DNA of 64,000 bases, from NCBI GenBank assembly GCA_021603905.1, contig BQIU01000015.1:1-64000 (forward strand). The letters are read 5' to 3'. Shown here piece by piece: positions 1 through 15,692 of the stretch. The position numbers were made by a program, and so were the translations under genes. Position 1 is the first letter of the stretch, and each line of letters starts with the position of its first letter. Origin of the DNA: Nitrospirales bacterium. GTDB taxonomy: Bacteria > Nitrospirota > Nitrospiria > Nitrospirales > UBA8639. Below the pieces are notes generated by a model. That model was not told where the DNA came from and did no database searches. It saw only the letters and a program-made list of their open reading frames with translations.

Positions 1-1010
1 TCGTACCCCACATCAATGACATTGGCACCTCGGTCACGTCCGGCTTGACGGCTGCCAATATTGACGGCAGGCACACCCAAATAGGAACATTCCCGAATCC
101 CCGCACTCGAATTCCCCACAAGACATTGACTGTGATAGATAGTCTGCACAAACACATCAGGCGGGAGATTTCTAAAAAAGTGGACATTCGGTAAATCGTG
201 ATGCTCTCGAAATACACGTATGCCTTGCGATGTTCCATCCGATCCGGCATCCACATTTGGCCAAAACCATAACGTCGGGAACCCGCTCGCGCTGACGGCA
301 TGCAGCGTTTCTTCAATATGTTGCCGAGCTTGTTGAAACTCTGTGGTAACCGGATGCTGTAAGACCACAATGTAGCCCTTCGTCACGTCGAATTCGTCAC
401 CCACACCACCATACGTCTTAAAAAACTGATCTACGCTCATTTGCGGACGAGCGATGGCACTTTTGGCTAGATCAATGGACGGGCATCCGGTCACGAAGAC
501 ACGATCGGACCGCTCCCCCATGCGTATGACCCGCTTCCCTGCTCGTTCGGTCGAGACAAAATGGAGGTCAGCCAATTTGGTGACCGCATGTCGTACTTTC
601 TCATCAATCGATCCGGTAATTTCGCCACCCTGGATATGCACCAAAGGGATATTCATATAGGCTGCACAAACCGCAGTGGCCATCGTTTCAAACCGATCGG
701 CAATGGTCACGACGACATCAGGTTGTAAATCATCAAACACCGTCGCCATCTCTGCCAGGCCTAATCCCGTGGATTTGGCAGAGGTCACTGGGTTTTCACC
801 TTCCACAATCATATAGACACGACGATTGATCGTGAACCCATCTTTCTCAATCACTGCATTCGTGCTCCCATAGCGGTCCAAGAGCGCAGAGGCGGCAACA
901 ACCAACTGCAATTCAAGGCCTGGATGATTTCGAATGGCTTCTAACGCCGATCGAATACGAGAATAACTCGGCCTTGCCGTGATTACGACACAGACTTTAC
1001 GTTTGCTCAT
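1..1010 (-). CDS. neuC: UDP-N-acetylglucosamine 2-epimerase (hydrolysing), NeuC/LegG type, partial
   Basis: The gene starts at 1010 (ATG, MSKRKVCVVITARPSYSRIR) and is open through the left edge, so about 336 residues are visible and the C-terminus is missing. The N-terminal Rossmann strand, the VVTIADRFETMA segment, VHIQGGEITGSIDEKVRHA and the later VGNSSAGIRE stretch are typical of hydrolysing UDP-GlcNAc 2-epimerases. In nonulosonic acid pathways this enzyme releases UDP and forms ManNAc or the diacetyl analogue. Its ATG overlaps the neuB stop by 4 bp (ATGA), so the two are translationally coupled. Whether the substrate is UDP-GlcNAc or UDP-diacetylbacillosamine cannot be told from sequence alone. 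Confidence 0.9.
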   Translation of the reverse strand, partial: MSKRKVCVVITARPSYSRIRSALEAIRNHPGLELQLVVAASALLDRYGSTNAVIEKDGFTINRRVYMIVEGENPVTSAKSTGLGLAEMATVFDDLQPDVVVTIADRFETMATAVCAAYMNIPLVHIQGGEITGSIDEKVRHAVTKLADLHFVSTERAGKRVIRMGERSDRVFVTGCPSIDLAKSAIARPQMSVDQFFKTYGGVGDEFDVTKGYIVVLQHPVTTEFQQARQHIEETLHAVSASGFPTLWFWPNVDAGSDGTSQGIRVFREHHDLPNVHFFRNLPPDVFVQTIYHSQCLVGNSSAGIRECSYLGVPAVNIGSRQAGRDRGANVIDVGY

Positions 1011-2053
1011 GACCGCGATTCCAGATCCTCAAGCAGAATACAGGCATCACGTTTCACCGCCCGACAAAGAGTTCGGCCCAGGATTGTCGACATTTGACTG
1101 GGAGGAACCCCCGTGCCTGGCTTTTTAATGGCCAAATGCTCGCTTGCCAAGATTGTTCCTTCTTTTAAATCATCATTAGCCACAATACTTTTCATGAAAA
1201 TGTCTCGAAGAGAAGCAATGTCCGAGGGTAACGCCGATTTCTCGACTGGATTGGCCTTCATGCGTTCAATGACACGAATCCCGTCAACAAGCTGCCGCAG
1301 TTCCTCTGTCGTAATTGAAGCTGGAACATCCGGACCAAACATCTCACGACTGAGCGTGACATGCACTTCTAACACTTCAATTCCCGTCGTTGCTGCCGCT
1401 AACCCCGGGTAGATTGTTCCAGAATGATCCGATAAGCCGACGGAACACCCATACCGCTCTCGAAACATCGTCAACACATTCAACCCAATTTGCTCGGGAG
1501 GGCAAGGATAGAGTGACGTACATTGAAACACCGCTAAGGATTCCGTCCGTTCACGCACATGCTGAACCGCGAGATCGATTTCTTCAACCACGCTCATCCC
1601 TGTTGATAAAATAATTGGCAGATTCGTCGCAGCCATTGATTCCAACAAGGGGAAGTTCGTGATTTCACCAGAGGGGACTTTCCAGGCTTCCACACCGACG
1701 TCGGTCAGCAACTTAACGGCTTCAAGAGAAAAAGGAGAGCTGAGAAAACACAAGCCTCGCGCTTTCGCATGCTCCCGTAAGCTCACCCACTGCTCAGGAG
1801 TAAATTCCATACGACGCCAATAGTCGTATCGTGTTTTATCTTGAAGACTAAATGACTTTCGCCAGGGTTCAGCAGCGGTACTTTCGGCTGCAGCAATATG
1901 GGTTTGAAACTTGACTGCATCGGCCCCCGCATCGGCAATCGCATCAATAAATGCGTGCGCTAAGCCTAAGCTCCCATCATGAGATTGACCAACTTCTGCA
2001 ACAATGGCACACGCAGAACCCGGGACGGGTTGTTGGAGCCAGGTAGGATTCAT
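1007..2053 (-). CDS. neuB: N-acetylneuraminate/legionaminate synthase family, NeuB
   Basis: A 348-residue protein, the usual length for NeuB. It has an N-terminal TIM barrel (CAIVAEVGQSHDGSLGLA near residue 15; DAVKFQTH; WKVPSGEITNFPLL; LSTGMS) and a C-terminal SAF/antifreeze-like domain (SIVANDDLKEGTIL, IKKPGTGV) from about residue 280. The family condenses phosphoenolpyruvate with ManNAc or a 6-deoxy diamino hexose to give sialic, legionaminic or pseudaminic acid. It sits between neuA upstream and neuC downstream in one minus-strand operon. The exact sugar is unresolved. I prefer a legionaminic-like product only weakly, because free-living bacteria make that more often than Neu5Ac. Confidence 0.9.
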   Translation of the reverse strand: MNPTWLQQPVPGSACAIVAEVGQSHDGSLGLAHAFIDAIADAGADAVKFQTHIAAAESTAAEPWRKSFSLQDKTRYDYWRRMEFTPEQWVSLREHAKARGLCFLSSPFSLEAVKLLTDVGVEAWKVPSGEITNFPLLESMAATNLPIILSTGMSVVEEIDLAVQHVRERTESLAVFQCTSLYPCPPEQIGLNVLTMFRERYGCSVGLSDHSGTIYPGLAAATTGIEVLEVHVTLSREMFGPDVPASITTEELRQLVDGIRVIERMKANPVEKSALPSDIASLRDIFMKSIVANDDLKEGTILASEHLAIKKPGTGVPPSQMSTILGRTLCRAVKRDACILLEDLESRS

Positions 2054-2098: not shown

Positions 2099-2836
2099 TC
2101 ATTGCAATGATGACTCGGACTTGGCAGCCTGTTCACGCTGCAACACCACATTGGCAAGATCAAGCTCAAACGGTTCATCAATATTGATAATGTGCCGATC
2201 AATCACCACTCCGACACAATCATCTTCGACGATATGTCCTTTTGTCAAAAGCGTCTCTCTCGTCACGGCATAACACAATCCATTCCGCGAATAATAGGAA
2301 GGAATCGTTTGCCGTCGTGAATGCTGGGCACCATCTTTCAGATAAAAATCGAGGGAACCCGACGGTGTTAATGTGAGTAACTTTTGAGGCGTAAAGTGAC
2401 CCGGCACACGGCTCACCGTCGCAGCGGCATGATGTCCCCCGTCAACTAAGGCCTGCACCGTTCGCTCAACTTCTTCCGGCTGTCGTAAAGGCGTTGTGGG
2501 TTGCAAGAGGAGAGAAATCTCAAACCGGCATTGATAGTAGTCTTCGCTTTGACTCCACGCATGTTGCCACATACCTACTGAAGATGCTTGATCATCAGCA
2601 AATTCTGCCGGACGAAGAAAGGGGGCATCCAGACCATGGGCACGACCTTCTTCTGCCATTTCTTCATCATCGGTAGAGATGATAGCGTGGTCTATCCAGT
2701 GAAGCGCTTTAACGGTTTGAGCCGCATGAGCAATCAACGAATACTCGCCCACCTTACACAAATTTTTTCGGGGTATTCCCTTGCTGCCTCCGCGAGCGGG
2801 TACCACTGCCAAAATACGCTGTCCCTGCCAAGCCAC
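2099..2836 (-). CDS. neuA: CMP-nonulosonic acid (acylneuraminate) cytidylyltransferase, NeuA
   Basis: A 245-residue protein with the N-terminal nucleotide-binding signature ILAVVPARGGSKGIPRKNL, typical of CMP-sialic/legionaminic acid synthetases, plus ISTDDEEMAEEG and LLLQPTTPLR. It activates the nonulosonic acid with CTP for glycosyltransfer. The start is taken as GTG at 2836 because an AGGAG sits 6 nt upstream; the ATG just ahead is out of frame. It is first in the neuA-neuB-neuC order, 45 bp from neuB. A 250-bp gap separates it from the serine palmitoyltransferase gene upstream, so it may have its own promoter. Confidence 0.88.
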   Translation of the reverse strand: MAWQGQRILAVVPARGGSKGIPRKNLCKVGEYSLIAHAAQTVKALHWIDHAIISTDDEEMAEEGRAHGLDAPFLRPAEFADDQASSVGMWQHAWSQSEDYYQCRFEISLLLQPTTPLRQPEEVERTVQALVDGGHHAAATVSRVPGHFTPQKLLTLTPSGSLDFYLKDGAQHSRRQTIPSYYSRNGLCYAVTRETLLTKGHIVEDDCVGVVIDRHIINIDEPFELDLANVVLQREQAAKSESSLQ

Positions 2837-3086: not shown

Positions 3087-4292
3087 CTACGAGGTCTCTA
3101 TCTGCAATTCACCCAGCTTTTCTTTGAGGGAGGCAAAAGTCTCACATATATACGTGAGCTGAGCAGTGGTATGGGCTGCACTCACACTACAACGCAATAA
3201 ACTGAGGCCATTGGGTGTCGCGGGAGGGAGCATCAGATTGACATAGACACCCTGTTCAATGAGACCGTTCCAAAAGGCAATGGCATACTCCTTTGATGGA
3301 ACAGTCGCCGCAACCACGGGAGAAACTTCAGGCCCAAGTGCGAAGCCAGCCTTTTGTAACCCCTCATACAGCACATGACTATTTTCCCACAGTCGTTCAC
3401 GCAATTGGTGATTTTCTTCAAGGATTTTTAAGGCCATTCGTGTTGAGGCCACCACCGATGGGCAGAGGGATGCCGAAAAAATATAGGGACGGCTCATGTA
3501 TCGTATATAATCGAGTTCCGGCCGTCGACTCACGCAAAACCCGCCCGTTGACCCCAAGCTTTTGCTAAACGTTCCCACAATAAAATCTACGTTGTCTTCA
3601 AGCTTAGCCTCTTCGGCCAGCCCACGACCATGCGGACCAAGGACCCCGAGTGAATGCGCTTCATCAACGACTAAACAGGCTTCATATTTTTCCTTGATCG
3701 CCACAATAGGGGCCAAGGGTGCCCGATCACCCAGCATACTATAAATACCCTCAAGGACAATTAGAGTTCTTGTTGCGCGCTCACCGAGTCTGACTAATCG
3801 TTTCTCAAGATCATTCACATCGTTATGTCGAAATCGAATGACTTCCGCACCGCCTAAACGGCACCCATCGTAAATACTTGCGTGACTATCCGCATCAAGC
3901 AGAATGACATCTTCAGGTCCTGCAAGGGTCGACAAAATCCCTAGGTTGGCTTGGTACCCGGTCGAGAAAACAATTGCGGTAGAACAGCCGTAAAATTCCG
4001 CAATTTCCTTCTCAAGAGCCACATGACCTTCAAAGGAACCATTCGCCATACGCGATCCAGTGGTCCCTGTCCCATGACGTTCTAAAGCCTCGCGTGCCGC
4101 GGCAATGCATTGCGGATCAAACGTCAATCCCAAATAATTATTGGTACCAGCCAAGATCGTGCGGCGATCGTTGATCATAGCTTCTGTTGGAGAGAGAACT
4201 TGTTGGACCACGAGTCGAAAGGGATCGACACCGTGGTCGACAATCGCCTGGTGGGCAGTCCGAACCGGGGTGAATTTATCGAATAGCGTCAT
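3087..4292 (-). CDS. spt: Serine palmitoyltransferase (alpha-oxoamine synthase family)
   Basis: A 401-residue PLP enzyme. The PLP lysine is K244 in GTFSKSLGS; D210 and H213 of VVDEAHSLG contact the cofactor, and the DSHAS histidine near 137 stacks on it. Three features favour serine palmitoyltransferase over KBL or 8-amino-7-oxononanoate synthase: the FSKSLG lysine motif, RPYIFSASLCPSV at about 268, and the LPPATPNG loop near 356. It would condense L-serine with an acyl thioester to 3-ketosphinganine in the cytoplasm. The start overlaps the ACP stop by 4 bp (ATGA). The ACP, reductase and ligase in the same operon match the Caulobacter spt neighbourhood. Confidence 0.87.
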   Translation of the reverse strand: MTLFDKFTPVRTAHQAIVDHGVDPFRLVVQQVLSPTEAMINDRRTILAGTNNYLGLTFDPQCIAAAREALERHGTGTTGSRMANGSFEGHVALEKEIAEFYGCSTAIVFSTGYQANLGILSTLAGPEDVILLDADSHASIYDGCRLGGAEVIRFRHNDVNDLEKRLVRLGERATRTLIVLEGIYSMLGDRAPLAPIVAIKEKYEACLVVDEAHSLGVLGPHGRGLAEEAKLEDNVDFIVGTFSKSLGSTGGFCVSRRPELDYIRYMSRPYIFSASLCPSVVASTRMALKILEENHQLRERLWENSHVLYEGLQKAGFALGPEVSPVVAATVPSKEYAIAFWNGLIEQGVYVNLMLPPATPNGLSLLRCSVSAAHTTAQLTYICETFASLKEKLGELQIETS

Positions 4293-4540
4293 GAGGATGG
4301 TACAACAAGTTTGGAAATTTGAACGGCAAGGTCGTCAATCGTTCTCACGTCTGGAACAATATTAAGTGGCACCGAAATATCAAACTCATCTTCAATCGTC
4401 GACAATAGTTCCATCACTTGCATCGAATCAAGGCCGAGATCAGCCACAAGTTGTGTGTCGGACTTCAAAGTTTTCCCTTCTTTGACAAAAGGAGATAGGA
4501 CCTCATACAGCTTTTCGGTTATGTCATCATGGTTACCCAT
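4289..4540 (-). CDS. Acyl carrier protein dedicated to sphingolipid synthesis (AcpR-like)
   Basis: An 83-residue acidic ACP. The phosphopantetheine-accepting serine lies in LGLDSMQVMELL, followed by a typical helix II (EDEFDISVPLNIVPDVRTIDDLA). I use the internal ATG at 4540 because a GGGGG ribosome-binding run lies 6-7 nt upstream; a longer frame from 4567 adds nine residues of non-ACP sequence. It overlaps serine palmitoyltransferase by 4 bp. It presumably carries the acyl chain loaded by the downstream-encoded acyl-AMP ligase and hands it to the synthase, as inferred for the Caulobacter cluster. Confidence 0.88.
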   Translation of the reverse strand: MGNHDDITEKLYEVLSPFVKEGKTLKSDTQLVADLGLDSMQVMELLSTIEDEFDISVPLNIVPDVRTIDDLAVQISKLVVPSS

Positions 4541-4608
4541 CAAATCCCCCTTCTCCCTATTGTACATACCAGGTCAGATCATCAAGAGAAAACGTTTGGA
4601 AGTCGAAT

Positions 4609-5544
4609 TTAGGAAACACGTTCATCAGGATGCAATGAACGTCTCACCCCTTCCACTAACGATATTGACGGCTCCCACCCTAACAGCTTAGTCAGTTCTG
4701 TGTTATCACAAACCCAATGGGGATGTCTCAATTCTCGCACTTTACCATAGGTCAATATTGGATCATACCGAAAAATTCTTGCGAGGGCTTGATTGATCGA
4801 TGCCGTCGCACTCAGCACGGCTTTTGGAACCACAAATCGGATCACCGATTTTCCACCCACCAGTTCAAAGACATCTGCCCAGGAATACCCACCTGCATGT
4901 CCATCATGAAGCTCTAACGCCAATCCGGCGTGAGGTCCGCGTTCCAACCACATTACAACTGCGGCAGTTAAATCATCAACATACAACAATGAAAACCTGG
5001 AGTGCCTCTCCCCTAACTGCACGCCAATCCCTCGTTCAATCCATTGAAATAAGGGAAGGGTTGCTCGGTCGTGCGGTCCATAGACCGCTGGAGGACGAAG
5101 AATAATCCAGTCCATTCTTCCTGCCATTTCTTGAAGGGCGACCTCTCCCTGCTGCTTACTCCACGCATAGGCTGAGAGAGTTGGTTCTCTCGCTGCCAGC
5201 GATGATAGTAGGACAAAACGCGGGGGTCGCTGTTGCGAAGCAGCGAGACGTGCAATTCGACCCACCCCCTCAACATTACTTTCTTGAAACTGCGCACGGT
5301 CAAGCCCTCGAACCCTCCCTGCACAGTGGACCACTGCGTCGACGCCATCGACAAGAGCGGACAACCGCTCTTCATCTTGTAACGTCCCTTCAATAAATTT
5401 TTTATGATGAAGTTCGTCTCGATGCCGATTGGCATAAGAAGGACGGATTAATGCACGAACCGCCCACCCGGCCTCTTCAAGACGCCGCCATAACACCTGA
5501 CCAATAAATCCCGTAGCTCCTGTTAAGGCAACTATTCGGGACAT
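4609..5544 (-). CDS. Extended SDR / NAD-dependent epimerase family, ceramide reductase (CerR)-like
   Basis: A 311-residue extended short-chain dehydrogenase. The dinucleotide motif GATGFIG is at residues 9-15. The catalytic tyrosine and lysine are in YAWSKQQGE (about 147-155) and a substrate-binding ILRPPAVYGP segment follows. In Caulobacter the cognate cluster enzyme (CerR) reduces the keto group of 3-ketoceramide, and this gene holds the same place between the ACP/spt pair and the acyl ligase. The reductase assignment is therefore by family and position. From sequence alone it could also be a sugar-nucleotide epimerase. Confidence 0.75.
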   Translation of the reverse strand: MSRIVALTGATGFIGQVLWRRLEEAGWAVRALIRPSYANRHRDELHHKKFIEGTLQDEERLSALVDGVDAVVHCAGRVRGLDRAQFQESNVEGVGRIARLAASQQRPPRFVLLSSLAAREPTLSAYAWSKQQGEVALQEMAGRMDWIILRPPAVYGPHDRATLPLFQWIERGIGVQLGERHSRFSLLYVDDLTAAVVMWLERGPHAGLALELHDGHAGGYSWADVFELVGGKSVIRFVVPKAVLSATASINQALARIFRYDPILTYGKVRELRHPHWVCDNTELTKLLGWEPSISLVEGVRRSLHPDERVS

Positions 5545-5575
5545 GGTCAGGGCAATGACGTATGGCGAATAATGA

Positions 5576-7366
5576 TTAGAGAGAAGCTAAACTCTCAGAA
5601 GGAGCAGCACATAAGGCAAGATCTGGCGACTCGTTCCAATTGCCTCGTTTTAAAAAATCTTCACGAGCGCGAGATCTGGACAACTTCCCAGAAGAGGTTC
5701 GAGGCAAGGTTCGAGGAGGAATCAACTCAACAAAACAGTCAATTCCTAATTCTTTGTAAATAATTGGCTTTAATTGCTCAATTAAGTGTTCTCGTTTTTC
5801 AGAGTCTGTTTCACGACATTGAATGACGACCACAGCAGATTCTTCTCCACTCGACGATTTGACAGAAAATGCCGACGCATCACCTGGTCGAACACCTGGA
5901 AGACATTCTGCGAGGTACTCTAAATCTTGAGGCCAAATATTTTTCCCATTAATAATGATCAAATCTTTCTCACGTCCAATGATGACGAGACTTTCACCAA
6001 TGCGATACCCAATATCGCCAGTATTTAACCATCCATCAGAGGAGAGAACTTCTTGGGTAGTGACAGGATCACCAAAGTATCCAGTCATCAGCCCTGGCCC
6101 TTTAACATAAATCACCCCGGCACATCGCTCAGGAAGGATGTCACCGAACTCATCACGGATTTCAACGTCACAATCCGGAATTGGGTTCCCGCAGTTCACA
6201 TAGCTGCTTTCTCGAACATTGGTCTTTGAGCTTGGCGTGTCATCATCCAAGGGGATCGCTTCTTTATATTCCGCTAAATGATCCCCATCGACATAATCCA
6301 CAATCAGACCTTGATCAAGTGGAGCAAAACTCACAGCCAATGAACATTCGGCCATTCCATAACATGCCACAAATGCCTTTTTATTAAAGCCACTGGGCTC
6401 AAGCGCTTTCGCAAACTGCAACAGGGACTCAGCGCGAACCGTTTCGGCTCCCACACCGGCGATACGCCAATTTGACAGATCGAATTGATCACGGTCCCGT
6501 TCGGCCAATCGCCTCAGGCATAATTCAAATCCGAATGAAGGACTGAACGATATCGTGGCCTTACTCTGCGTCATGAGATTCAACCATTGCCGTGGTCGCA
6601 TCGCAAAATCTCGCGTGCTGAGATAATCCACAGACAACTGAGAAGCCAGTGGACCCAACACAAACCCCACTAATCCCATATCGTGATAGAAGGGCAACCA
6701 TGAAACGCATCGGTCACCAGATCGGACCTGAAGTCCATGTTGGATGATCCCTGACAAATTGCTCAACACAGCCTCTTGCGTGATTTCCACACCACGAGGC
6801 CAGCGAGTACTTCCGGAGGTAAACTGTATGTACGCGAGTTCTGATGATCCCAGAGGACGTAACTCTTGCGCAGCTTCTGGAAGGCTGGCAAATACATCTG
6901 CCCCACCTTGAATCTCCAGATCAAGGCCTTGCGAAGCCTCCTCAAGATACGGAACAATTTCTTCTGGAGCCACTGCAGCAGAAGCTCCGCAGGTCATCAA
7001 CAAACGATTCAATTGTTTGACGTACGCATCATGTCCGCCAAGGTGCATGGACACTGGGAGGGGAACAGGCACAAACCCAGCCATTTGACAAGCAAAGAAA
7101 AACCGAAGGAAATCAGGGGTTGTATCTGCAACTATCGCCACTCGTGCTCCACGTGGCAATTGAAGAGACAACAAACGCCTGGCAAGGGCACCGGACTGCT
7201 GATAGAGATCTCGATAAGAAAGGGCGACTGAAAGTTTCCCTCGGCTTGTGAAGAAATTACATCCGGTCGTTCCTTGTGCTGCATACTCAAGTGCATGCGA
7301 CAAGCTTTGAAAGTTTCCCGGTCGAAGAGGAATTCCACTTTGAGTTGGGGTCACAATACTTTCCAT
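5576..7366 (-). CDS. Acyl-AMP ligase / acyl-ACP synthetase (FAAL-like)
   Basis: An approximately 596-residue adenylate-forming enzyme. The AMP-binding loop is YIQFTSGSTRWPRGV, the A5-type motif is CYGMAECSLAVSF, and the later adenylation motif is GWLNTGDIGYR with IIINGKNIWPQDLE near the C-terminal hinge. These features are closer to fatty-acyl-AMP ligases than to acyl-CoA synthetases. I choose ATG at 7366 because GAGGGGG lies 8 nt upstream; the frame extends to 7390. It is the first gene of the spt operon, 31 bp from cerR, and probably charges the operon ACP with a fatty acid. Confidence 0.85.
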   Translation of the reverse strand: MESIVTPTQSGIPLRPGNFQSLSHALEYAAQGTTGCNFFTSRGKLSVALSYRDLYQQSGALARRLLSLQLPRGARVAIVADTTPDFLRFFFACQMAGFVPVPLPVSMHLGGHDAYVKQLNRLLMTCGASAAVAPEEIVPYLEEASQGLDLEIQGGADVFASLPEAAQELRPLGSSELAYIQFTSGSTRWPRGVEITQEAVLSNLSGIIQHGLQVRSGDRCVSWLPFYHDMGLVGFVLGPLASQLSVDYLSTRDFAMRPRQWLNLMTQSKATISFSPSFGFELCLRRLAERDRDQFDLSNWRIAGVGAETVRAESLLQFAKALEPSGFNKKAFVACYGMAECSLAVSFAPLDQGLIVDYVDGDHLAEYKEAIPLDDDTPSSKTNVRESSYVNCGNPIPDCDVEIRDEFGDILPERCAGVIYVKGPGLMTGYFGDPVTTQEVLSSDGWLNTGDIGYRIGESLVIIGREKDLIIINGKNIWPQDLEYLAECLPGVRPGDASAFSVKSSSGEESAVVVIQCRETDSEKREHLIEQLKPIIYKELGIDCFVELIPPRTLPRTSSGKLSRSRAREDFLKRGNWNESPDLALCAAPSESLASL

Positions 7367-7676
7367 TAATCTAGCCCCCTCATCTGCCACTTTCGTGAAG
7401 TACGAGACAGTACATTTCTCTCAACATCCATTTCCAACATTCTCCATCTATCCCTACCTATAAAAATACCTAAGTATATAATCTCATAGCAATTTACTTG
7501 GCACATGAAGACACAACCGAACCTAGGCTTTACTAAGCAATACACATACCAAAACGATAACGTGAAATTGTCATATATTACAGCCATTTTCTTTATTATT
7601 TTCACTACCTTATTGAAAAACTGTTGCTTAACTGCAACTGAAATGAGTCCATTTAGACACACTGCAAGCAAAAAAT
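7367..7676. other. Intergenic region upstream of the sphingolipid operon
   Basis: About 310 bp of AT-rich sequence between the acyl-AMP ligase start and the HIT gene stop, both on the minus strand. It should hold the promoter of the ligase-cerR-acp-spt operon. I see no convincing -35/-10 pair, open frame with family features, or strong hairpin. Confidence 0.5.
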
Positions 7677-8099
7677 TTAATGAGACTTGAGGTGTGAAAG
7701 AATCAATTGATTGAGTTCGCTACCCGTCGTATTTGCTTGCTTAAAGTTAGGGGGGCCAGGCCAGCCATGATCCAAAAATTCTTGCTCAGCAAAGAGCTTG
7801 TGCCCAGAATATCTTGGGATGACATGAAAGTGCACATCTGGATCGACCATCATCAACATGAGGTAATTAATCTTTTCGTAAGAAAACGCACGAGCCAAAA
7901 CACCTTCAACGTACTTCGCAACCTCACGTAACTCTAGAAAGGACTCTGCACTAAGCTCAGAAAAGGCTGAAACGTTTTCTTTGCACACGATCACCAAAGA
8001 ACCGAGGGTTATCTGTTGCGGACGCAACAACACAACCCACTGATTAAATATTTTCAATCGAGTCTCTGGATCCCCGAATTTTTGCAAGGTCGCATTCAT
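7677..8099 (-). CDS. HIT-family hydrolase/transferase
   Basis: An approximately 140-residue histidine-triad protein with the active-site motif DVHFHVIPRY near residue 99. It has the upstream beta strands VVLLRPQQITLGSLVIVCKE of the fold. The frame extends to 8267, but ATG at 8099 gives the conventional HIT length and has GGGAGA upstream. Family members hydrolyse nucleoside-phosphate bonds (AMP-lysine, ApnA, nucleotide sugars). Its position next to an adenylate-forming ligase invites a clean-up role for acyl-AMP or nucleotide-activated headgroups, but that is a guess. Confidence 0.82.
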   Translation of the reverse strand: MNATLQKFGDPETRLKIFNQWVVLLRPQQITLGSLVIVCKENVSAFSELSAESFLELREVAKYVEGVLARAFSYEKINYLMLMMVDPDVHFHVIPRYSGHKLFAEQEFLDHGWPGPPNFKQANTTGSELNQLILSHLKSH

Positions 8100-8498
8100 T
8101 CTCTCATTCTCCCTATTTTTTTTGAGGTTCCATCCTACAGACTTTGGACAGCAAGATGAAATTACCATATGATGAGAAAGGAACATATGGTGAGAAAGGA
8201 TCATATTGCAACAGATCAATTGAACCGATAGGCCTAAACGCCTGTTCACGAATAAAAACCAAGACAAGCAAAAGTGAAGCGCCTGTTTAACCGATAGGGA
8301 TGTTGTATGAAAATGCGCTCAATCGTTTCAAGCTTCCACCAACAAAAACATCCTCCATCTTTTGCCGAGCCGATAAATACACCACTCGGAACAATCAAAC
8401 GAGGTCCCAATCAGCGCCTGCTTGAGTTCACTTTCTCTGCTGCCTATAATTGCTACTCAAGATCAACATTCATCAGGGTAGGCCAAGCCATATAAGCC
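8100..8498. other. Divergent intergenic region (HIT gene / hydroxylase)
   Basis: About 400 bp between the minus-strand HIT start and the plus-strand hydroxylase start. It contains the 18-bp tandem repeat listed separately. A frame reads through part of it upstream of the HIT start but encodes nothing recognisable. Confidence 0.5.
8166..8206. repeat. 18-bp tandem repeat, 2.3 copies
   Basis: Unit 1 (8166-8183) is CATATGATGAGAAAGGAA and unit 2 (8184-8201) is CATATGGTGAGAAAGGAT, with two mismatches; a third CATAT begins at 8202. It lies 67-107 bp upstream of the HIT start in a divergent promoter region, so a repeated operator is possible. Chance duplication is equally possible. Confidence 0.7.
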
Positions 8499-9242
8499 AT
8501 GAATGCTTCAGGAAGTTTTTGGCGTGAACGCACGCATCACTTAGACAAGATGACCTTACGCGAACTCGTGATCGCGTACTTTCAATATCCAGCTGTCATC
8601 GCCTATATCATCTTACTTTTCCCAAGTTCCTACATGGCAATTGTTCCATGGCAAGAAAATATTGCAACTCATTGGTCACTCTTGCTTCTTGCAGCCATGA
8701 CAGCTGTCCTCGTCTATCCGGCTGTCTGGTACCTCCTCCACCGATTTGTGTTGCATGGTCAGTATCTTTACCGATCACCACTGACAGCCGCCTTATGGAA
8801 ACGAATTCACTTTGACCATCATCAAGATCCCAATAATCTTCGAGTCCTCTTCGGGGCCCTCTACACCACCCTTCCGACCGTCGCCATCGTCACCATGACT
8901 GTTGGCAACCTTATCGGAGGTTATCAAGGTGCGGCAGCCGCATTTGCAGCTGGACTCGCGACGACGTTGGTCTATGAATTTTGTCATTGCATTCAGCACT
9001 TACGCTACGTGCCGAAATCTCAATTTCTTCGAAGGATTAAACGACTGCATTTGCTCCATCATTTTCACAACGAAAACGGCAATTACGGTATCACCAACTA
9101 TTTCTGGGATAAACTGTCCGGTACGTTTTATGGACAATCAAATGATGTCCCTTCAAGTTCTACGGTCTTTAACCTTGGGTATAGCGAACAGGAAAGTGAT
9201 CGCTATCCCTGGGTCGCCAAACTTTCCGAGTCCAATCAGTAG
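8499..9242 (+). CDS. Fatty acid hydroxylase / sterol desaturase superfamily membrane protein
   Basis: A 247-residue integral membrane protein with four hydrophobic segments and the di-iron histidine clusters of the superfamily: HRFVLH near 88, HFDHH near 107, HCIQH near 167 and HLLHHFH near 184, followed by NGNYG. It likely adds a hydroxyl group to a lipid chain using O2 in the inner membrane. Flanked by the spt operon and a ceramide-synthase-like gene, the sphingoid base or the N-acyl chain is the most economical substrate. A carotenoid or other lipid substrate cannot be excluded. Confidence 0.82.
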   Translation: MNASGSFWRERTHHLDKMTLRELVIAYFQYPAVIAYIILLFPSSYMAIVPWQENIATHWSLLLLAAMTAVLVYPAVWYLLHRFVLHGQYLYRSPLTAALWKRIHFDHHQDPNNLRVLFGALYTTLPTVAIVTMTVGNLIGGYQGAAAAFAAGLATTLVYEFCHCIQHLRYVPKSQFLRRIKRLHLLHHFHNENGNYGITNYFWDKLSGTFYGQSNDVPSSSTVFNLGYSEQESDRYPWVAKLSESNQ

Positions 9243-9476
9243 TGCGTTCGTACAGTGACGCGCATCATCCTCAATAGACGCATTTCCATTCGACTTCCCT
9301 ACACTCATTTGCTATATGAGCCATGAGGCCGAGACTTTCGCCTTAGACTATTCACACAAACAGTAGGAAATTCGATTGACTGACATTGCCGCTAAGACGT
9401 CGTCTCTAGCGGCCATGAGGACGGTTTCGCTCAAAACCAATACAGTGCCAGGAACGACTGACCTGCACCCCATATC

Positions 9477-10685
9477 ATGTCCGACTATGTCCAAATGAAT
9501 TCGCACACTCACAAGACTTTTCAACAGTTGATCACGACCAATGAAGGCAACGCACTTCGTATTGTTCCCGTAGAAGATTCTCGAACCGTAGAACAGTTTA
9601 TTCGTGTCCCGTGGGCAATTTACACCCATGATGAAAACTGGGTCCCCCCGCTCTTACTGGAACGGAAGCAACACCTTTCAAAACGTAATCCCTATCTTTC
9701 GCATGCCACCGTTCAATTATGGATAGCGTACCGCAACGATCAACCCGTTGGGCGCATCAGCGCACAAATCGATAGATTCCACCAAGAACGCTATCGAGAC
9801 CACACAGGGTTTTGGGGTATGCTGGAAGCACATGACGATCAAGAAGTTTTCCATGCACTGCTGAATACGGCTGAACAGTGGCTACAAGAAAAGGGCATGC
9901 GTCGAACCCTCGGCCCTTTCAACCTTTCCATTAACCAGGAATGCGGACTCCTTATTGACGGAATGAATTCACCACCAATGGTCATGATGGGACATGCCCT
10001 CCCCTATTACCCCCAGCACATTGAATCGTACGACTATCGAAAAGCCAAAGATCTCTTCGCCTATCGCGTTGATCTTGACTTCATCATTCCACCCATTATT
10101 CAAAAAGCGATTCGCAAAGCCGAATCGTCTATCACTTTTCGTCAACTGCGACGGAATGATTTCAAAAATGAACTTGAAACAATTCACCGCATATTCGAAG
10201 AAGCCTGGTCCGATAATTGGGGGTTTATTCCATTTTCCGACGAAGAATTTGCCGCGGTTGGCCAGGAATTACGACTATTAGTCGATGATAGTTTTATTCA
10301 AATCGCCGAAGTCGACGGAACACCGGAGGCCATGCTTGTCGCCTTCCCCAATGTGAATGAACTCATCCGAGATCTCAATGGACGCTTATTCCCAATAGGC
10401 TGGATGAAATTTCTCTGGCGTCTTAAGGTTTCACACCCTCAAACAGCGCGAGTCGTATTAATGGGTGTCAGAAAAAAATATCAAGGCACGCCACTAGGGG
10501 CAGTTCTCGCATTTGGCATGATCGACTCTGTTCGGCAGGCAGGACGAAAATGGGGAATCAAACACGTCGAATTGTCATGGATCCTGGAAGATAATATCGG
10601 CATGAAAAGTATGTTACAAGCGATCGGATGCGAGCAGTACAAGACGTATCGCGTTTATGAAAAACACTTGACAAAGAGGCAATAA
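9477..10685 (+). CDS. GNAT-fold acyltransferase, candidate bacterial ceramide synthase (bCerS-like)
   Basis: A 402-residue soluble protein with two GNAT-like halves. The C-terminal half carries an acyl-CoA-binding-like stretch VLMGVRKKYQGTPLGAVL near 325. The N-terminal part has VPWAIYTHDENWVPPLL and GPFNLSINQECGLLIDG, which resemble the GNAT-family proteins of bacterial sphingolipid loci. The Caulobacter ceramide synthase belongs to this group and acylates 3-ketosphinganine. I make the call on domain type, length and co-location with spt, acp and cerR; a search would be needed to secure it. The stop is followed immediately by the nucleotidyltransferase frame, so the two are probably co-translated. 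Confidence 0.72.
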   Translation: MSDYVQMNSHTHKTFQQLITTNEGNALRIVPVEDSRTVEQFIRVPWAIYTHDENWVPPLLLERKQHLSKRNPYLSHATVQLWIAYRNDQPVGRISAQIDRFHQERYRDHTGFWGMLEAHDDQEVFHALLNTAEQWLQEKGMRRTLGPFNLSINQECGLLIDGMNSPPMVMMGHALPYYPQHIESYDYRKAKDLFAYRVDLDFIIPPIIQKAIRKAESSITFRQLRRNDFKNELETIHRIFEEAWSDNWGFIPFSDEEFAAVGQELRLLVDDSFIQIAEVDGTPEAMLVAFPNVNELIRDLNGRLFPIGWMKFLWRLKVSHPQTARVVLMGVRKKYQGTPLGAVLAFGMIDSVRQAGRKWGIKHVELSWILEDNIGMKSMLQAIGCEQYKTYRVYEKHLTKRQ

Positions 10686-10726
10686 TCATCAAAGCCACAC
10701 CACATCGTTCGACTTTTACGGCCATT

Positions 10727-11503
10727 GTGTTAGCTGGAAGCCGCGCCGCTCACGACCCCGTAGCTGAAGCTGCAGGAGTACCCTGCAAGGCGTTGACTCC
10801 GATCGGAAATACACCAATGGTATTTCGTGTACTTGAGACACTCAAGACAGCACAAACGATCTCACGTCGAATTCTTTGCGGCCCGGGTTCGTCCATCATT
10901 GACCAAGAGCCCCGGCTCCGTAGCTGTATTGACTCACAAGAAATCGAATGGATTGCACCGCAGTCGACTCCCAGTACCAGCGCCGCGTTTGCCATGCAAT
11001 CCATTCCGCATGAGACACCAATCCTCATTACGACAGCCGATCATGCATTACTCACCCCTGAAATGGTCGACTATTTTTGCTCCAAGGCTCAGGCCAGCCA
11101 GAGTGATGTCATTGCCGGCCTTGTCCCCTCTGATATCGTCCAAGAGGCCTTCCCGCAATCCAAACGAACCGTGATGAAATTCAAAGATCAAGGCTATTGC
11201 GGCTGCAATCTGTTCGCCTTTCTCACCCCACAAGGTCGAACGATGGCTACATTCTGGCAGCAGATCGAACAAGAACGGAAAAAACCGCTTCGTCTTATCG
11301 GCACGCTCGGCTGGATGGCTGTCTTGCGATTTTTGACAGGGAACCTATCGTTGGCTCAAGGACTGGCAGGTATCTCAAAAAAACTGAATCTGAAGATTAA
11401 TACGGTTTCGCTGCCATTCCCGCAAGCGGCTGTCGATGTGGATACAGTGGCTGACTGGGAACTTGTTCAGAAAATTGTGCAGGAACGGTCCGTCGGAACC
11501 TAG
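10727..11503 (+). CDS. MobA-like NTP transferase family protein (start uncertain, frame open from 10661)
   Basis: A nucleotidyltransferase with a first strand FTAIVLAGSR, a metal-binding TTADHALLTPEMV and a second acidic site AVDVDTVADWELV. The first canonical start codon is GTG at 10727, but that removes the beginning of the strand that normally opens the fold. In-frame codons upstream (ATA 10682, ATC 10685, ATC 10688) follow an AGAGG at 10675-10679 and could initiate, or translation may be coupled to the upstream gene, whose stop is at 10683-10685. It likely transfers a nucleotide to a phospho-alcohol or sugar phosphate for lipid headgroup use. The 3' end overlaps the convergent 11500-12246 gene by 4 bp. 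Confidence 0.75.
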   Translation: MLAGSRAAHDPVAEAAGVPCKALTPIGNTPMVFRVLETLKTAQTISRRILCGPGSSIIDQEPRLRSCIDSQEIEWIAPQSTPSTSAAFAMQSIPHETPILITTADHALLTPEMVDYFCSKAQASQSDVIAGLVPSDIVQEAFPQSKRTVMKFKDQGYCGCNLFAFLTPQGRTMATFWQQIEQERKKPLRLIGTLGWMAVLRFLTGNLSLAQGLAGISKKLNLKINTVSLPFPQAAVDVDTVADWELVQKIVQERSVGT

Positions 11504-12246
11504 GGTTTTCCCGCATCATGTAAGCTTTCGACCAGTTTATGCGCATGATCAAGATCGGCTGAACTATCAATTTCTCCCCATTTCAGCCCGCGAATAGCAC
11601 TGGTCCATACAGAGCCTGCTTGAGCCAACTCATCGATAATCGATAAATACCATTTTTTCAAAGACTCTGGTCGACGCAACGCCTGTTCAACGGCCTGACG
11701 AAAAACTGTTGGGCCTTCGTCACGGAACACCATCATGCCGATTGATTCCCCATGCGTCTCGCCAATGGGTATGGTTTTCCCCACCCTTGCCAGTTTCGTC
11801 CCATCAAGAATGACCTTCATATCATCGGCATCGTACGTTCCCTTGGAATCCGTCACGAGGGTCACCGGATGACGAGGTGAGGCCAGCAATTGCCGAGGCA
11901 CGGCAGACTCGAACAACGTATCACCGTTTAACAAAATAAATTCATCGGTCATTTCTCCTCGAGCAACCCAGCAACTTCCTAAATTGTCAGCCACAGCATA
12001 AAAAGGATTGAAAATAGTACGAACCCAATTCTCATACCCTTGCTGCTGAAGAAGCTGCTCCACTTTGTCCGCACCATACCCCACTACAACAGACACTTGC
12101 TCAATGCCGCATTGACGCAGTTCCTGTAATTGCCATTCAAGAAGAGACTTTCCACCAATTTGGAGTAGACATTTTGGATTTTCAGCTGTGAGAGGCAATA
12201 ACCGTCGACCTTGACCAGCACTCAGAATAATCGTTTTCATGATCAC
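11500..12246 (-). CDS. Sugar-phosphate / phospho-alcohol nucleotidyltransferase (LicC / IPCT-like)
   Basis: A 248-residue NTP_transferase protein. It has the N-terminal signature ILSAGQGRRLLPLT...PKCLLQIGGKSLLEWQL, the catalytic aspartate in LLNGDTLFES (about 103), and WGEIDSSADLDHA near the C-terminus, where the second metal-binding aspartate usually lies. The layout resembles phosphocholine or inositol-1-phosphate cytidylyltransferases. It could supply a CDP-alcohol to the two CDP-alcohol phosphotransferases encoded about 4-8 kb away. It is convergent with and overlaps the MobA-like gene by 4 bp. Confidence 0.78.
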   Translation of the reverse strand: MIMKTIILSAGQGRRLLPLTAENPKCLLQIGGKSLLEWQLQELRQCGIEQVSVVVGYGADKVEQLLQQQGYENWVRTIFNPFYAVADNLGSCWVARGEMTDEFILLNGDTLFESAVPRQLLASPRHPVTLVTDSKGTYDADDMKVILDGTKLARVGKTIPIGETHGESIGMMVFRDEGPTVFRQAVEQALRRPESLKKWYLSIIDELAQAGSVWTSAIRGLKWGEIDSSADLDHAHKLVESLHDAGKP

Positions 12247-12534: not shown

Positions 12535-13617
12535 ATGATGTTATTAGAACGATATCTCGCCAGAGAAATTCTCAAGCCCTTCCTCGGCATTTGTGCAATC
12601 CTCATTACCATGTTTGTGAGCTTTAATTGGGTTCGCTTCTTAGGACGCGCTGTCGAAGCTCAACTGCCGTCCAGCATGATCTTCACCCTCATCATTTTCA
12701 AGGTAATTATTGCATTGGAAGTGCTACTCCCTGTTGCCCTCCTGTTATCCATCGTCCTTGGACTCGGACGTCTTCATATGGAATTAGAAATGACTGCTCT
12801 TTCTGCCTGTGGGGTGAGTCCCTTGAAACCTTTCAAGGTGGTGTTCTTGTTTGCCCTCGCACTCTCACTACTGGTCAGCTGTTTATCGCTGTTTATTCGC
12901 CCATGGGCCTATCAACAAAGTTACGACCTCCAAGCCAAAGCCGACACTGGATTTCGCGTGTCAGATCTTGAAGCCGGCCGATTTTATGAACGAAAAAAAA
13001 ATGATGGCTCATTCGTTCTATTCATGAAAGACATTGACGTGAAAGACGGAAGAATGAAACAGGTGTTTGTGCAGACTGAAAAAGGGGACAATATTCGCAT
13101 CCTGTCTGCGAAAGAAGGTTATGAACGCCGCGATCCTATCACCAATCAAATGTTACCCGTTCTCGTCGATGGATACGAATATAAATTGTCACGCCATGAA
13201 GGTATTAATCGCATTACGGCCTTTAAAGAACTCACCATTTTTCCAAGTGATAACCAATCGGTCTACTATACGCGAAAGGCATCACCAAACACTCAATTGG
13301 CCAAATCATCCAACCCCAAAGAGTTTGCTGAATTTCAATGGCGGCTCTCAACTGGTCTCTCGACTTTGCTCTTAGCTTTGCTCGGCATTCCGTTAAGTCG
13401 TGCCACTCCGCGCCAAGGGAAATATGCCAAACTTTTTGTTGCAGTCATCGCCTTTGCGATCTATTACAACCTTGGTGCCATTGCCATGACTTGGGTAGAG
13501 CAGGGCATCGTGGATCCAATCTTCCCTGGTATTTGGTGGGTCAATGGAATCCTGCTCATAGTGCTCCTCATCTATTACTGGCCACCCACGTTGATTCGCC
13601 AAGGACGAACGTCATAA
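12535..13617 (+). CDS. lptF: LPS export permease LptF (YjgP/YjgQ family)
   Basis: A 360-residue inner-membrane protein. It has three N-terminal membrane helices within residues 1-125, a periplasmic beta-jellyroll of about 170 residues and three C-terminal helices. LERYLAREILKPFL at the N-terminus and LEMTALSACGVSPLK after helix 2 are standard for LptF/LptG. With LptG and the ATPase LptB it extracts LPS from the inner membrane for the Lpt bridge. lptG follows after 63 bp. The adjoining sphingolipid genes suggest an envelope-lipid locus. Confidence 0.88.
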   Translation: MMLLERYLAREILKPFLGICAILITMFVSFNWVRFLGRAVEAQLPSSMIFTLIIFKVIIALEVLLPVALLLSIVLGLGRLHMELEMTALSACGVSPLKPFKVVFLFALALSLLVSCLSLFIRPWAYQQSYDLQAKADTGFRVSDLEAGRFYERKKNDGSFVLFMKDIDVKDGRMKQVFVQTEKGDNIRILSAKEGYERRDPITNQMLPVLVDGYEYKLSRHEGINRITAFKELTIFPSDNQSVYYTRKASPNTQLAKSSNPKEFAEFQWRLSTGLSTLLLALLGIPLSRATPRQGKYAKLFVAVIAFAIYYNLGAIAMTWVEQGIVDPIFPGIWWVNGILLIVLLIYYWPPTLIRQGRTS

Positions 13618-14768: not shown

Positions 14769-15692
14769 CTACGATACGGCGAGGTGTTGCTCGTGATCAA
14801 GATGAAAACGTTGCGTCTCAGCAGAATACGCATAGACCTGGACTTGAATATCCCACGCTCCTGACCGTTCTTTGACTGAATACAGATGATAGTGCGCTCG
14901 GCGATCCGGTGTCGCCCCGACTGCCGAGGCCGAAGGCACTCCCAAAACGGGAATTGGCTGTGTGGGCGTCGAAATCGACGTCATGATTGAACGGTGCGCA
15001 TGACCATGAAGCACTAATTCAGCTCCGCATTGAGCAAGAATCGCTTCAAGAGTAGAAGCATTCGTCAAAGATTTTCGCCACTTGACAATCCCAGACAACG
15101 GAGGATGATGAATCAACACGACTCGACAGAGGTTTTGGCGGCCTAATTGACGCAACACCTCTTCCAGTTTCGACAACTGTGCCGCGTCGAGAGTGCCAGT
15201 TGCTAAAAACGGCAACGTCGGCTGCGCACTCGACAACCCGATGAAGGCCACACGTCCTCGAATACGGACCGTGGGAAACACGCCCTCAGCACTGGAGAGT
15301 GACTCTGCTTCGTTCGCCTGATCAGAAAGCAGATAGGGGGCCCAATGGGCAAATGTTTTCTCCCATGCTGTGGCTACATAGGTTTCATGATTCCCAGGAA
15401 TCACGGTGACGTGTGTCGCCGGCCCAAGGTCATGAAGCCAATCTTTGGCTTCTTCAAATTCAGCCGGTAGTCCCAAATGCGTGAGATCTCCTGTAATGAC
15501 AATGTGATTGGGATTTTTGATACGCACATCATCAACGAGCCTTGCTAAAATCTCTCCTTGATGTTCCGTTCGTCGGTGCGAACGCCAAGAGAGATATCCC
15601 AACACTCGTTTACTGAACAAATCCCCTATTTCAACATCTTCGAGCGTCGTCAAATGAGGATCTGATAAATGGGCAAAAGTAAAGTCACTCAT
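14769..15692 (-). CDS. Calcineurin-like metallophosphoesterase
   Basis: A 307-residue enzyme with the full metallophosphoesterase motif set: HLSDPHL (D-x-H, residue ~9), ITGDLTHLG (~65), IPGNHETY (~97), LIHHPPLSG (~190) and LHGHAHRS (~232). No signal peptide is visible, so it should be cytoplasmic. Relatives include cyclic-nucleotide phosphodiesterases and lipid-pathway phosphatases such as LpxH-type enzymes. Its location beside lptFG and the lipid-kinase module suggests a lipid or headgroup phosphate substrate, but nothing in the sequence fixes it. Confidence 0.83.
   Translation of the reverse strand: MSDFTFAHLSDPHLTTLEDVEIGDLFSKRVLGYLSWRSHRRTEHQGEILARLVDDVRIKNPNHIVITGDLTHLGLPAEFEEAKDWLHDLGPATHVTVIPGNHETYVATAWEKTFAHWAPYLLSDQANEAESLSSAEGVFPTVRIRGRVAFIGLSSAQPTLPFLATGTLDAAQLSKLEEVLRQLGRQNLCRVVLIHHPPLSGIVKWRKSLTNASTLEAILAQCGAELVLHGHAHRSIMTSISTPTQPIPVLGVPSASAVGATPDRRAHYHLYSVKERSGAWDIQVQVYAYSAETQRFHLDHEQHLAVS

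What the first reader, a model, noticed from the sequence alone, without database searches (positions are those of the whole stretch)
3087..10685. A candidate sphingolipid core set (spt, acp, cerR-like, acyl ligase, bCerS-like) in a nitrifier-like genome
The sequence shows a serine palmitoyltransferase with SPT-type FSKSLG and PPATP motifs, co-translated with an ACP (ATGA overlap), a CerR-like SDR and a FAAL-like ligase, followed by a lipid hydroxylase and a GNAT protein like bacterial ceramide synthase. The same gene types make ceramide in Caulobacter (Spt, ACP, CerR, acyl-ACP synthetase, bCerS). A complete set here would mean ceramide-type lipids in a lineage where they are not commonly described.
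Basis: partly seen in the sequence, partly recalled or inferred. Interest (0 to 1): 0.82.

Follow-up and report, generated by a model that had tools for sequence, protein, structure and literature searches.

The report
Complete phosphosphingolipid gene island in Nitrospirales
This stretch of a Nitrospirales bacterium carries what looks like a near-complete toolkit for making a ceramide lipid, giving it a charged head and moving it to the outer membrane, a pathway worked out mainly in Caulobacter; the genes tend to be present together or missing together across the order, but no lipid has been measured.

Summary
3087-4292 is a serine palmitoyltransferase (NCBIfam SPT model 637 bits, cut-off 500). 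With 4289-7390 (ACP, CerR-type SDR, fatty acyl-AMP ligase) and the GNAT 9477-10685 it matches the five genes of the E. coli BL21 ceramide cluster at 41-57% identity. The island runs on to about 20593: CpgD-like cytidylyltransferase, LptF/LptG, phosphoesterase, two CDP-alcohol phosphotransferases, DAGK-type kinase, Tam41-type CDP-lipid synthase: most of the Caulobacter ceramide-diphosphoglycerate (CPG2) gene set (PMC11324152). In 59 Nitrospirales genomes SPT and GNAT occur in the same 21; this LptF in 20 of them, kinase, phosphotransferase and hydroxylase in 19, HIT protein in 18; none, at ortholog-level identity, in the other 38. Of 13 published CpgD contact residues 11 are identical here. Outside the published pathway: a ceramide-hydroxylase-like gene beside bCerS, also beside it in 15 of 20 alphaproteobacterial loci, and a HIT protein. 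The pathway is known; lineage, completeness and two extra genes are the news. No lipid is shown.

The parts
1007..2053 (-). NeuB-type synthase downstream of spt; membership in the island uncertain
   Evidence: PF03102; NCBIfam NeuB model below its cut-off
2099..2836 (-). NeuA/PseF-type CMP-sugar-acid cytidylyltransferase; membership uncertain
   Evidence: PF02348; homologues at 68% or more in 4 of 59 genomes, all with SPT and next to it
3087..4292 (-). spt, serine palmitoyltransferase
   Evidence: NF047599 637 bits over cut-off 500; PDB 2x8u and 2w8j; tree; 57% to E. coli BL21 Spt
4289..4567 (-). acpR, dedicated acyl carrier protein, Ser48 in DSM
   Evidence: PF00550; 45% over 67 aa to E. coli BL21 ACP; ATGA overlap with spt
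4609..5544 (-). cerR/epi, NAD-dependent reductase of the SDR/epimerase family
   Evidence: PF01370; 41% to E. coli BL21 epi
5576..7390 (-). aasR, fatty acyl-AMP ligase / acyl-ACP synthetase
   Evidence: NF006624 764 bits; 46% to E. coli BL21 FAAL
7677..8099 (-). HIT-family protein with DVHFHV motif (ORF listed from TTG 8267; start inferred from homologues)
   Evidence: PF01230 in 16 of 17 aligned members; orthologues in 18 of 21 SPT+ and 0 of 38 SPT- genomes; alignment A3
8499..9242 (+). PF04116 hydroxylase, ceramide-hydroxylase-like
   Evidence: PF04116; profile A2 hits yeast Scs7, E 5.6e-15; 19 of 21 SPT+, 0 of 38 SPT-
9477..10685 (+). bCerS/aca, GNAT ceramide synthase
   Evidence: 47% to E. 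coli BL21 YghO, E 3e-128; in exactly the 21 SPT+ genomes
10727..11503 (+). MobA-like NTP transferase, likely counterpart of CC_1153; true start uncertain, frame open from 10661
   Evidence: PF12804; found in 70 of 80 named bCerS loci; start:
11500..12246 (-). cpgD-like CTP:phosphoglycerate cytidylyltransferase
   Evidence: PF12804/PF00483; LicC- and IPCT-type relatives in PDB; CpgD contact residues kept
12535..13617 (+). lptF2, second LptF-type permease
   Evidence: TIGR04407 309 bits, cut-off 230; in 20 of 21 SPT+ and 0 of 38 SPT- genomes at 45% or more
13681..14748 (+). lptG2, second LptG-type permease
   Evidence: TIGR04408 351 bits, cut-off 240
14769..15692 (-). metallophosphoesterase, likely counterpart of CC_1158
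   Evidence: PF00149; found in 23 of 80 named loci and in alphaproteobacterial islands
15875..17104 (+). CDP-alcohol phosphotransferase 1, cpgA-like, with N-terminal domain
   Evidence: PF01066; AlphaFold model best matches AF2299; 19 of 21 SPT+, 0 of 38 at 51% or more
17153..18142 (+). DAGK-type lipid kinase, cpgB-like ceramide kinase
   Evidence: PF00781, GGDGT motif; 19 of 21 SPT+, 0 of 38
18154..19107 (+). Tam41-type nucleotidyltransferase, cpgC-like CDP-lipid synthase
   Evidence: PF09139 over its cut-off; AlphaFold model (pLDDT 86) best matches Tam41, E 2.5e-9
19367..20593 (+). CDP-alcohol phosphotransferase 2, paralogue of the first
   Evidence: PF01066; 54% identical to 15875-17104

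Best explanation
The window carries a nearly complete, contiguous Caulobacter-type phosphosphingolipid island. AasR loads a fatty acid on the dedicated ACP. SPT condenses it with serine to 3-oxo-sphinganine. The GNAT bCerS adds the amide-linked acyl chain and CerR reduces the ketone. The neighbouring PF04116 enzyme probably hydroxylates the ceramide. The DAGK-type kinase makes ceramide-1-phosphate, and the Tam41-type enzyme activates it, perhaps as CDP-ceramide. The CpgD-like enzyme makes CDP-glycerate, and the CDP-alcohol phosphotransferases attach phosphoglycerate units. The second LptF/LptG pair carries the anionic lipid to the outer membrane. Shown here: homology, gene order, co-occurrence and conserved active-site residues. 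Inferred: every reaction, the final lipid and its location.
For: SPT over its curated cut-off and in the SPT clade. Five core genes 41-57% identical to the E. coli BL21 cluster. SPT and GNAT in the same 21 of 59 genomes; lptF2 in 20, phosphotransferase 19, kinase 19, hydroxylase 19, HIT 18 of those 21; none in the other 38 at ortholog-level identity. The island-type LptF comes on top of a distant second copy (own genome: C32, 24% over residues 2-132). Island order kept in Nitrospirales and in part in Desulfobacterota, Rokubacteria, Nitrosomonas and Alphaproteobacteria. Of 13 CpgD residues listed in PMC13228409 and PMC12275187 the window has 11 identical (G12, R16, K26, N90, N110, G111, D112, M147, K161, S170, W201), T93 as Ser and T88 (backbone contact) as Ala; N90, N110, M147 and K161 are invariant in 45 sequences, S170 in 44. 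Tam41 and AF2299 are the best fold matches of two headgroup proteins.
Against: No lipid data. No Caulobacter protein sequence was in hand, so equivalence to CC_1152-CC_1161 rests on domain families, gene order in unnamed alphaproteobacterial genomes, the E. coli BL21 cluster and published residue lists; the CpgD residues were placed by motif and spacing, and one spacing differs (K161 to S170 is 9 in CpgD, 11 here; three others differ by one). No LptC2 or flippase gene (CC_1168, CC_1166) was recognised by eye; none was searched for. Kinase and Tam41-type substrates could be other lipids. The 21 genomes are related, so co-occurrence counts are not independent trials, and some matches are contig-end fragments. 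G038 and G044 have SPT and GNAT without hydroxylase and HIT. Same-genus G003 lacks the island genes searched.
Confidence: 0.86

Rival explanations
1. A ceramide core is made, but the headgroup is not phosphoglycerate: the CDP-alcohol phosphotransferases (PI-synthase-like) and the IPCT-like cytidylyltransferase make an inositol- or other alcohol-phosphoceramide.
For: Best family hits of the phosphotransferases are archaetidylinositol-phosphate and PIP synthases, below cut-off; fold matches include PIP synthases; PDB relatives of the cytidylyltransferase include phosphocholine and inositol-phosphate cytidylyltransferases.
Against: The CpgD residues that touch glycerate (N90, N110, S170, M147, K161) are kept, and the gene set matches the CPG2 genes. 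No inositol-phosphate synthase was recognised by eye among the window ORFs; it was not searched for in the genome.
Confidence: 0.12
2. The five core genes make a different amide lipid: the SPT-family enzyme uses another amino acid than serine (capnine-, 1-deoxy- or sulfono-type base), and the island decorates that base.
For: The alpha-oxoamine synthase family has such branches (a cysteate acyltransferase is among the PDB hits); 1-deoxyceramides are prominent in the Black Sea (PMC11334938, passages).
Against: Equivalog SPT model far over cut-off; closest structures are SPTs; a ceramide kinase and phosphotransferases need the C1 hydroxyl that serine supplies (general knowledge).
Confidence: 0.04
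3. The island is binning contamination and does not belong to the Nitrospirales genome.
For: MAG with 7.5% contamination and two copies of part of the island.
Against: Same-genus G001 (2 contigs, 98% complete) and G002, and single-contig relatives G018 and G020, hold it; the SPT tree groups the window with its genus.
Confidence: 0.01

Closest known systems
Caulobacter crescentus CC_1152-CC_1168 phosphosphingolipid island (CPG/CPG2; PMC11324152, PMC12275187)
   Same: Likely counterparts of the five ceramide genes, of the six headgroup genes (CC_1152, 1153, 1158-1161) and of LptF2/LptG2, within about 17.5 kb
   Different: PF04116 hydroxylase and HIT gene inside; two CDP-alcohol phosphotransferases; no recognised LptC2 or flippase; another gene order. 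In Caulobacter acyl hydroxylation is ascribed to unlinked CC_0202, a DesA-family enzyme (PMC11324152)
Nitrosomonas eutropha spt region (Neut_0458-0461 and Neut_1100; PMC9386255, PMC11324152)
   Same: Order aasR-epi-acpR-spt; other Nitrosomonas loci show bCerS-ntp1-lptF-lptG-phosphotransferase-kinase-Tam41 like the window
   Different: Spread over three regions and lacking CC_1158 per PMC11324152; the window is one region and has a phosphoesterase
Escherichia coli BL21(DE3) yghO-spt cluster (L038)
   Same: Five core genes at 41-57% identity, and an lptF/lptG pair beside them
   Different: No kinase, Tam41-type or CDP-alcohol phosphotransferase match in the 49 kb searched
Yeast Scs7 ceramide fatty-acid hydroxylase
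   Same: The only significant hit of the hydroxylase profile among solved structures, E 5.6e-15
   Different: Only PF04116 was found in the window protein (247 aa), no cytochrome b5 domain; position hydroxylated unknown

Membership tests
Serine palmitoyltransferase | Score over a curated SPT model and not over KBL/BioF/ALAS models | tested here: met
   637.3 bits vs cut-off 500; BioF 347.6 (426), glycine C-acetyltransferase 332.8 (460) and 289.8 (493), ALAS 233.7 (339). Below the cut-offs of the alphaproteobacterial (503 vs 670) and Bacteroidota-type (375 vs 640) SPT models
Serine palmitoyltransferase | PLP lysine and neighbouring His/Asp/Arg aligned with solved SPTs | tested here: met
   K244, H137, D210, H213, R367 in the window, aligned with 2x8u/2w8j; catalytic roles recalled
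Serine palmitoyltransferase | Phylogenetic placement with a tested SPT | tested here: met
   41-row SPT clade with E. coli BL21 SPT, split from 10 paralogues at 100%; quick tree, SH-aLRT only; activity of the E. coli BL21 SPT from PMC9386255 abstract
Bacterial ceramide synthase (CC_1154/YghO) | Full-length homology to the family | tested here: met
Bacterial ceramide synthase (CC_1154/YghO) | N-acylation of the sphingoid base | not testable with these tools
   needs enzyme assay or lipidomics
Rhodobacterial AcpR/AasR pair | acp directly before spt in an operon with aasR near | tested here: met
   ATGA overlap of acp and spt; 41 nt between SDR and acp, 31 nt between FAAL and SDR, one strand
CpgD phosphoglycerate cytidylyltransferase | CTP-, Mg- and glycerate-contacting residues listed in PMC13228409 and PMC12275187 | tested here: met
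   11 of 13 identical, T93 as Ser, T88 (backbone contact) as Ala; placed by motif and spacing, not by alignment to CpgD
CPG2 island of Caulobacter | Genes for ceramide kinase, CDP-lipid synthase-like CpgC, CDP-alcohol phosphotransferase CpgA | tested here: met
   PF00781, PF09139, PF01066; fold matches Tam41 and AF2299; at the level of domain family only, Caulobacter sequences not in hand
CPG2 island of Caulobacter | LptC2 (CC_1168) and flippase (CC_1166) | not tested
   Not recognised by eye among the window ORFs; no search run; also lacking in N. eutropha per PMC11324152
CPG2 island of Caulobacter | CPG or CPG2 lipid | not testable with these tools
   mass spectrometry needed

The most novel reading that the evidence does not exclude
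These Nitrospirales make a hydroxylated ceramide-phosphoglycerate outer-membrane lipid whose assembly includes two components not assigned in the Caulobacter pathway: a ceramide hydroxylase that works with bCerS, and a HIT protein (possibly the neglected CC_1157, judged only by its position in alphaproteobacterial islands) that clears acyl-AMP or CDP intermediates. Some lineages may further attach a nonulosonic (sialic-acid-type) sugar, since NeuA/NeuB genes follow spt, which would be a bacterial ganglioside-like lipid.
Probability: 0.2. Interest if true: 0.8.

Novelty: new variant of a known kind. Interest (0 to 1): 0.55.

Why it matters
The section of PMC11324152 on conservation lists the CPG2 genes only for proteobacteria; here the set is nearly complete and contiguous in Nitrospirales, an order that includes nitrite oxidisers (general knowledge), and appears in part in Desulfobacterota, Rokubacteria and others. 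It gives a testable lipid prediction and possible biomarkers for this order. It also gives a comparative data set (21 genomes with, 38 without) that ties a second LptF to sphingolipid synthesis, bearing on the open question of how these lipids reach the outer membrane, and it points to two untested genes.

Tried and rejected
Considered and rejected: KBL or BioF identity of the PLP enzyme; an unrelated GNAT (a PDB search with the GNAT alone gave only four weak ribosomal-protein hits); contamination; a true duplication of the cluster (C123 is 88-95% identical per gene and lies in a contaminated bin; not excluded outright). Led nowhere: a Caulobacter locus was wanted for direct comparison, but the genome-contig scan kept the best 80 of 576 or more relatives and no listed title was Caulobacter, and the alphaproteobacterial sample is unnamed; a phmmer search with the Tam41-type protein found no relative among solved structures (best E 0.47). 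The nonulosonate link is only partial: in the alphaproteobacterial sample NeuA of the window type (49% or more) is in 18 of 387 genomes, 8 of them with bCerS, against 58 of 387 overall (Fisher p 0.002, not corrected for kinship), but NeuA and bCerS are physically linked in only 2 of the 8, and 10 of the 18 lack bCerS. Literature: three searches that combined Nitrospira, Nitrospirota or Nitrospirae with sphingolipid, ceramide or serine palmitoyltransferase were made (25 of 16,501 papers listed; 20 of 38; 20 of 14,924). No listed title or abstract start dealt with sphingolipids of Nitrospirales; this is no proof that none exists. A search for NPIRA with Nitrospirales found no paper. Stankeviciute 2022 and Zik 2022 were not read; they are known here only through papers that cite them.


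Full report
Where the window lies. It is contig C15 of a 4.74 Mb MAG in 203 contigs, 90.8% complete and 7.5% contaminated. Its nearest named relative found is Nitrospirales bacterium NPIRA04: G004, same genus, whose contig C1 has 360,342 bases like BQIX01000001.1. Whether this organism oxidises nitrite was not tested.

SPT, ACP, SDR, FAAL, hydroxylase and GNAT are at the stated places. The SPT scores 637 bits against NCBIfam NF047599 (cut-off 500) and falls below the cut-offs of the KBL, BioF and ALAS models listed. Its best PDB matches are bacterial SPTs. In a quick maximum-likelihood tree of 51 rows, 41 SPTs including E. coli BL21 Spt are separated from 10 paralogues by a branch with 100% SH-aLRT support. 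The rows are tblastn pieces of 300 or more residues without a stop; of 51 loci asked for, three (L036, L042, L043) gave no row, two gave a second, paralogous row, and the window was added. Within the SPT clade many forks are weak, and the branching between phyla is not resolved.

The five core genes are those of the Rhodobacterial ceramide pathway. PMC9386255 (outline with abstract, sections 3 and 13 seen) lists the five E. coli BL21(DE3) genes and the Nitrosomonas eutropha order aasR-epi-acpR-spt, the order seen here. Compared with the E. coli BL21 proteins, the window gives SPT 57%, ACP 45% (67 aa), SDR 41%, FAAL 46% and GNAT 47% over 375 columns. That paper lists YghO as the acyltransferase 'aca' beside Caulobacter CC_1154, which PMC11324152 names cerS; PMC11087976 (part 1 of 4 seen) calls the Caulobacter enzyme bCerS.

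The island is larger than the finding. To the right of the GNAT are an NTP transferase, a CpgD-like cytidylyltransferase, LptF and LptG over their NCBIfam cut-offs, a metallophosphoesterase, a CDP-alcohol phosphotransferase, a DAGK-type kinase, a Tam41-type protein and a second phosphotransferase. PMC11324152 (outline, section 8 part 1 of 2, section 9 and passages seen) describes the Caulobacter region as five ceramide genes, six headgroup genes (a CofC-like CC_1153, nucleotidyltransferase CC_1152, phosphoesterase CC_1158, CDP-alcohol enzyme CC_1159, ceramide kinase CC_1160, CDP-DAG-synthase-like CC_1161) and LptC2, LptF2, LptG2 and a flippase. Except for LptC2 and the flippase, which were looked for by eye only, each has a likely counterpart here. 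No Caulobacter sequence was in hand, so 'counterpart' means domain family plus context.

Co-occurrence. Among 59 genomes (own genome included), SPT orthologues (66% or more, or split pieces at 57-71%) are in 21; the other 38 have only paralogues at 41% or less. The GNAT is in exactly those 21. The island-type LptF (45% or more) is in 20 of 21, the phosphotransferase in 19, the kinase in 19, the hydroxylase in 19 and the HIT protein (53% or more) in 18; none in the 38, which show only weaker relatives of LptF, phosphotransferase, hydroxylase and HIT. LptG, the NTP transferases, the phosphoesterase and the Tam41-type gene were not counted genome-wide in this set. Several misses are incomplete genomes: G047 (73%) lacks LptF, phosphotransferase, kinase and HIT; G026 (84%) lacks phosphotransferase and kinase. 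G038 (90%) and G044 (96%) lack hydroxylase and HIT, which may be real. Some matches are fragments (LptF in G034 and G044, kinase in G041 and G044, hydroxylase in G006 and G028, HIT in G006). The genomes are related, so the Fisher values overstate the evidence. Against a mere neighbourhood effect: in G038 SPT and GNAT lie about 532 kb apart on one contig and still co-occur; G003, a 100% complete genome of the same genus, lacks all seven proteins searched.

Synteny elsewhere. These are lower bounds because many loci are cut. bCerS carriers include Nitrosomonas, Nitrosospira, Candidatus Nitrotoga, Methylotenera, Geobacter, Desulfobacterota, Rokubacteria and a Nitrospinota MAG. A Pseudomonas veronii plasmid carries yghO, a gene annotated as 8-amino-7-oxononanoate synthase and a relative of the kinase close together. 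In an even sample of Alphaproteobacteria 58 of 387 genomes have bCerS; 20 of these loci, chosen by me for contig length, were fetched.

Headgroup chemistry. PMC13228409 (a preprint; parts 1 and 2 of 5 seen) and PMC12275187 (part 1 of 4 seen) name CpgD residues. I placed them in the window by motif and spacing: G11, R15, K25, N88, N107, G108, D109, M143, K157, S168 and W199 are identical to G12, R16, K26, N90, N110, G111, D112, M147, K161, S170 and W201; T93 is S91 and T88, a backbone contact, is A86. In 45 sequences (from 113 loci tried, some of them the same genome twice) nine of the thirteen positions are invariant, G111 and S170 hold in 44, T93 is Ser in 40 and Thr in 5, T88 is Ala, Thr or Ser. 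Spacings G-R, R-K, N90-T93, M-K and S-W equal those of CpgD; K26-T88, T93-N110 and D112-M147 differ by one and K161-S170 by two. This makes phosphoglycerate the likeliest substrate but does not prove it. The Tam41-type protein was modelled at pLDDT 86; its best PDB match is Tam41, a CDP-DAG synthase, at E 2.5e-9 with TM-scores of 0.51 and 0.58. It fits the suggestion in PMC11324152 that CC_1161 activates ceramide-1-phosphate. The phosphotransferase (pLDDT 84) matches AF2299 and PIP synthases and has the CDP-alcohol motif with four aspartates (motif recalled).

Two genes not in the published pathway. The PF04116 protein lies beside bCerS in Nitrospirales, and in 15 of the 20 fetched alphaproteobacterial loci at 54-61% identity, higher than bCerS itself (40-48%) in those loci; of two further loci in the same run L165 has it and L154 has not. 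Its profile finds yeast Scs7, the ceramide fatty-acid hydroxylase, at E 5.6e-15; few proteins of this superfamily may have solved structures, so this does not fix the position hydroxylated. PMC11324152 attributes acyl hydroxylation in Caulobacter to unlinked CC_0202 of the DesA family. The HIT protein is beside FAAL in Nitrospirales and several Desulfobacterota loci, and near the island in 3 of the 20 alphaproteobacterial loci plus L154. In L197 and L203 it sits between the phosphoesterase and LptF, the place of CC_1157, which PMC11324152 calls probably unrelated. Whether CC_1157 is a HIT protein was not tested.

What is new. Bacterial SPT-bCerS-CerR sets are widely predicted (38 phyla in the Black Sea, PMC11334938, passages seen; its main text does not contain 'Nitrospir'), and Thermodesulfovibrio is already mentioned (PMC10667739, passages seen). 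New here is the nearly complete CPG2-type island with its own LptFG in Nitrospirales, its near all-or-none distribution, and the hydroxylase and HIT genes. I rate it a new variant of a known kind; all functions remain predictions.

Noticed in passing
window 1007-2836; L036 5341-8327; L040; L050: Nonulosonate genes NeuA and NeuB (and NeuC in L036 and L040) follow spt on the same strand; in L050 the gap to spt is about 35 bp, though its neuA is in two frames. NeuA at 68% or more occurs in 4 of 59 genomes and at 39-41% in 8 more, all with SPT; genomes without SPT have 37% at most.
   Followed up: partly
L049 10365-12800; L198 1754-4639: PF06258 (Elm1-type) proteins lie beside the sphingolipid genes in a Nitrospirales and an alphaproteobacterial genome.
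   Followed up: no
window 15875-17104 and 19367-20593: Two paralogous CDP-alcohol phosphotransferases (54%); six of 20 alphaproteobacterial islands (L201, L204, L205, L207, L209, L214) also show two matches, a candidate for the unknown enzyme that adds the first phosphoglycerate.
   Followed up: partly
L055 8253-9017 (G018): In single-contig genome G018 the spt gene is split in two overlapping pieces in different frames; a real frameshift or a sequencing error, not pursued.
   Followed up: no
L047 5236-6321; L054 9503-10588; L057 4183-5268: A divergent alpha-oxoamine synthase (33-34% to SPT) lies about 2-3 kb from spt on the opposite strand in f4 genomes.
   Followed up: no
window 10661-11503: The NTP transferase has no ATG, GTG or TTG start in its frame upstream of 10727 although several relatives are about 10 residues longer; unusual start or frameshift.
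   Followed up: partly
window 62088-63083: NirK-like copper protein, below the NirK model's cut-off (200 bits against 296).
   Followed up: no
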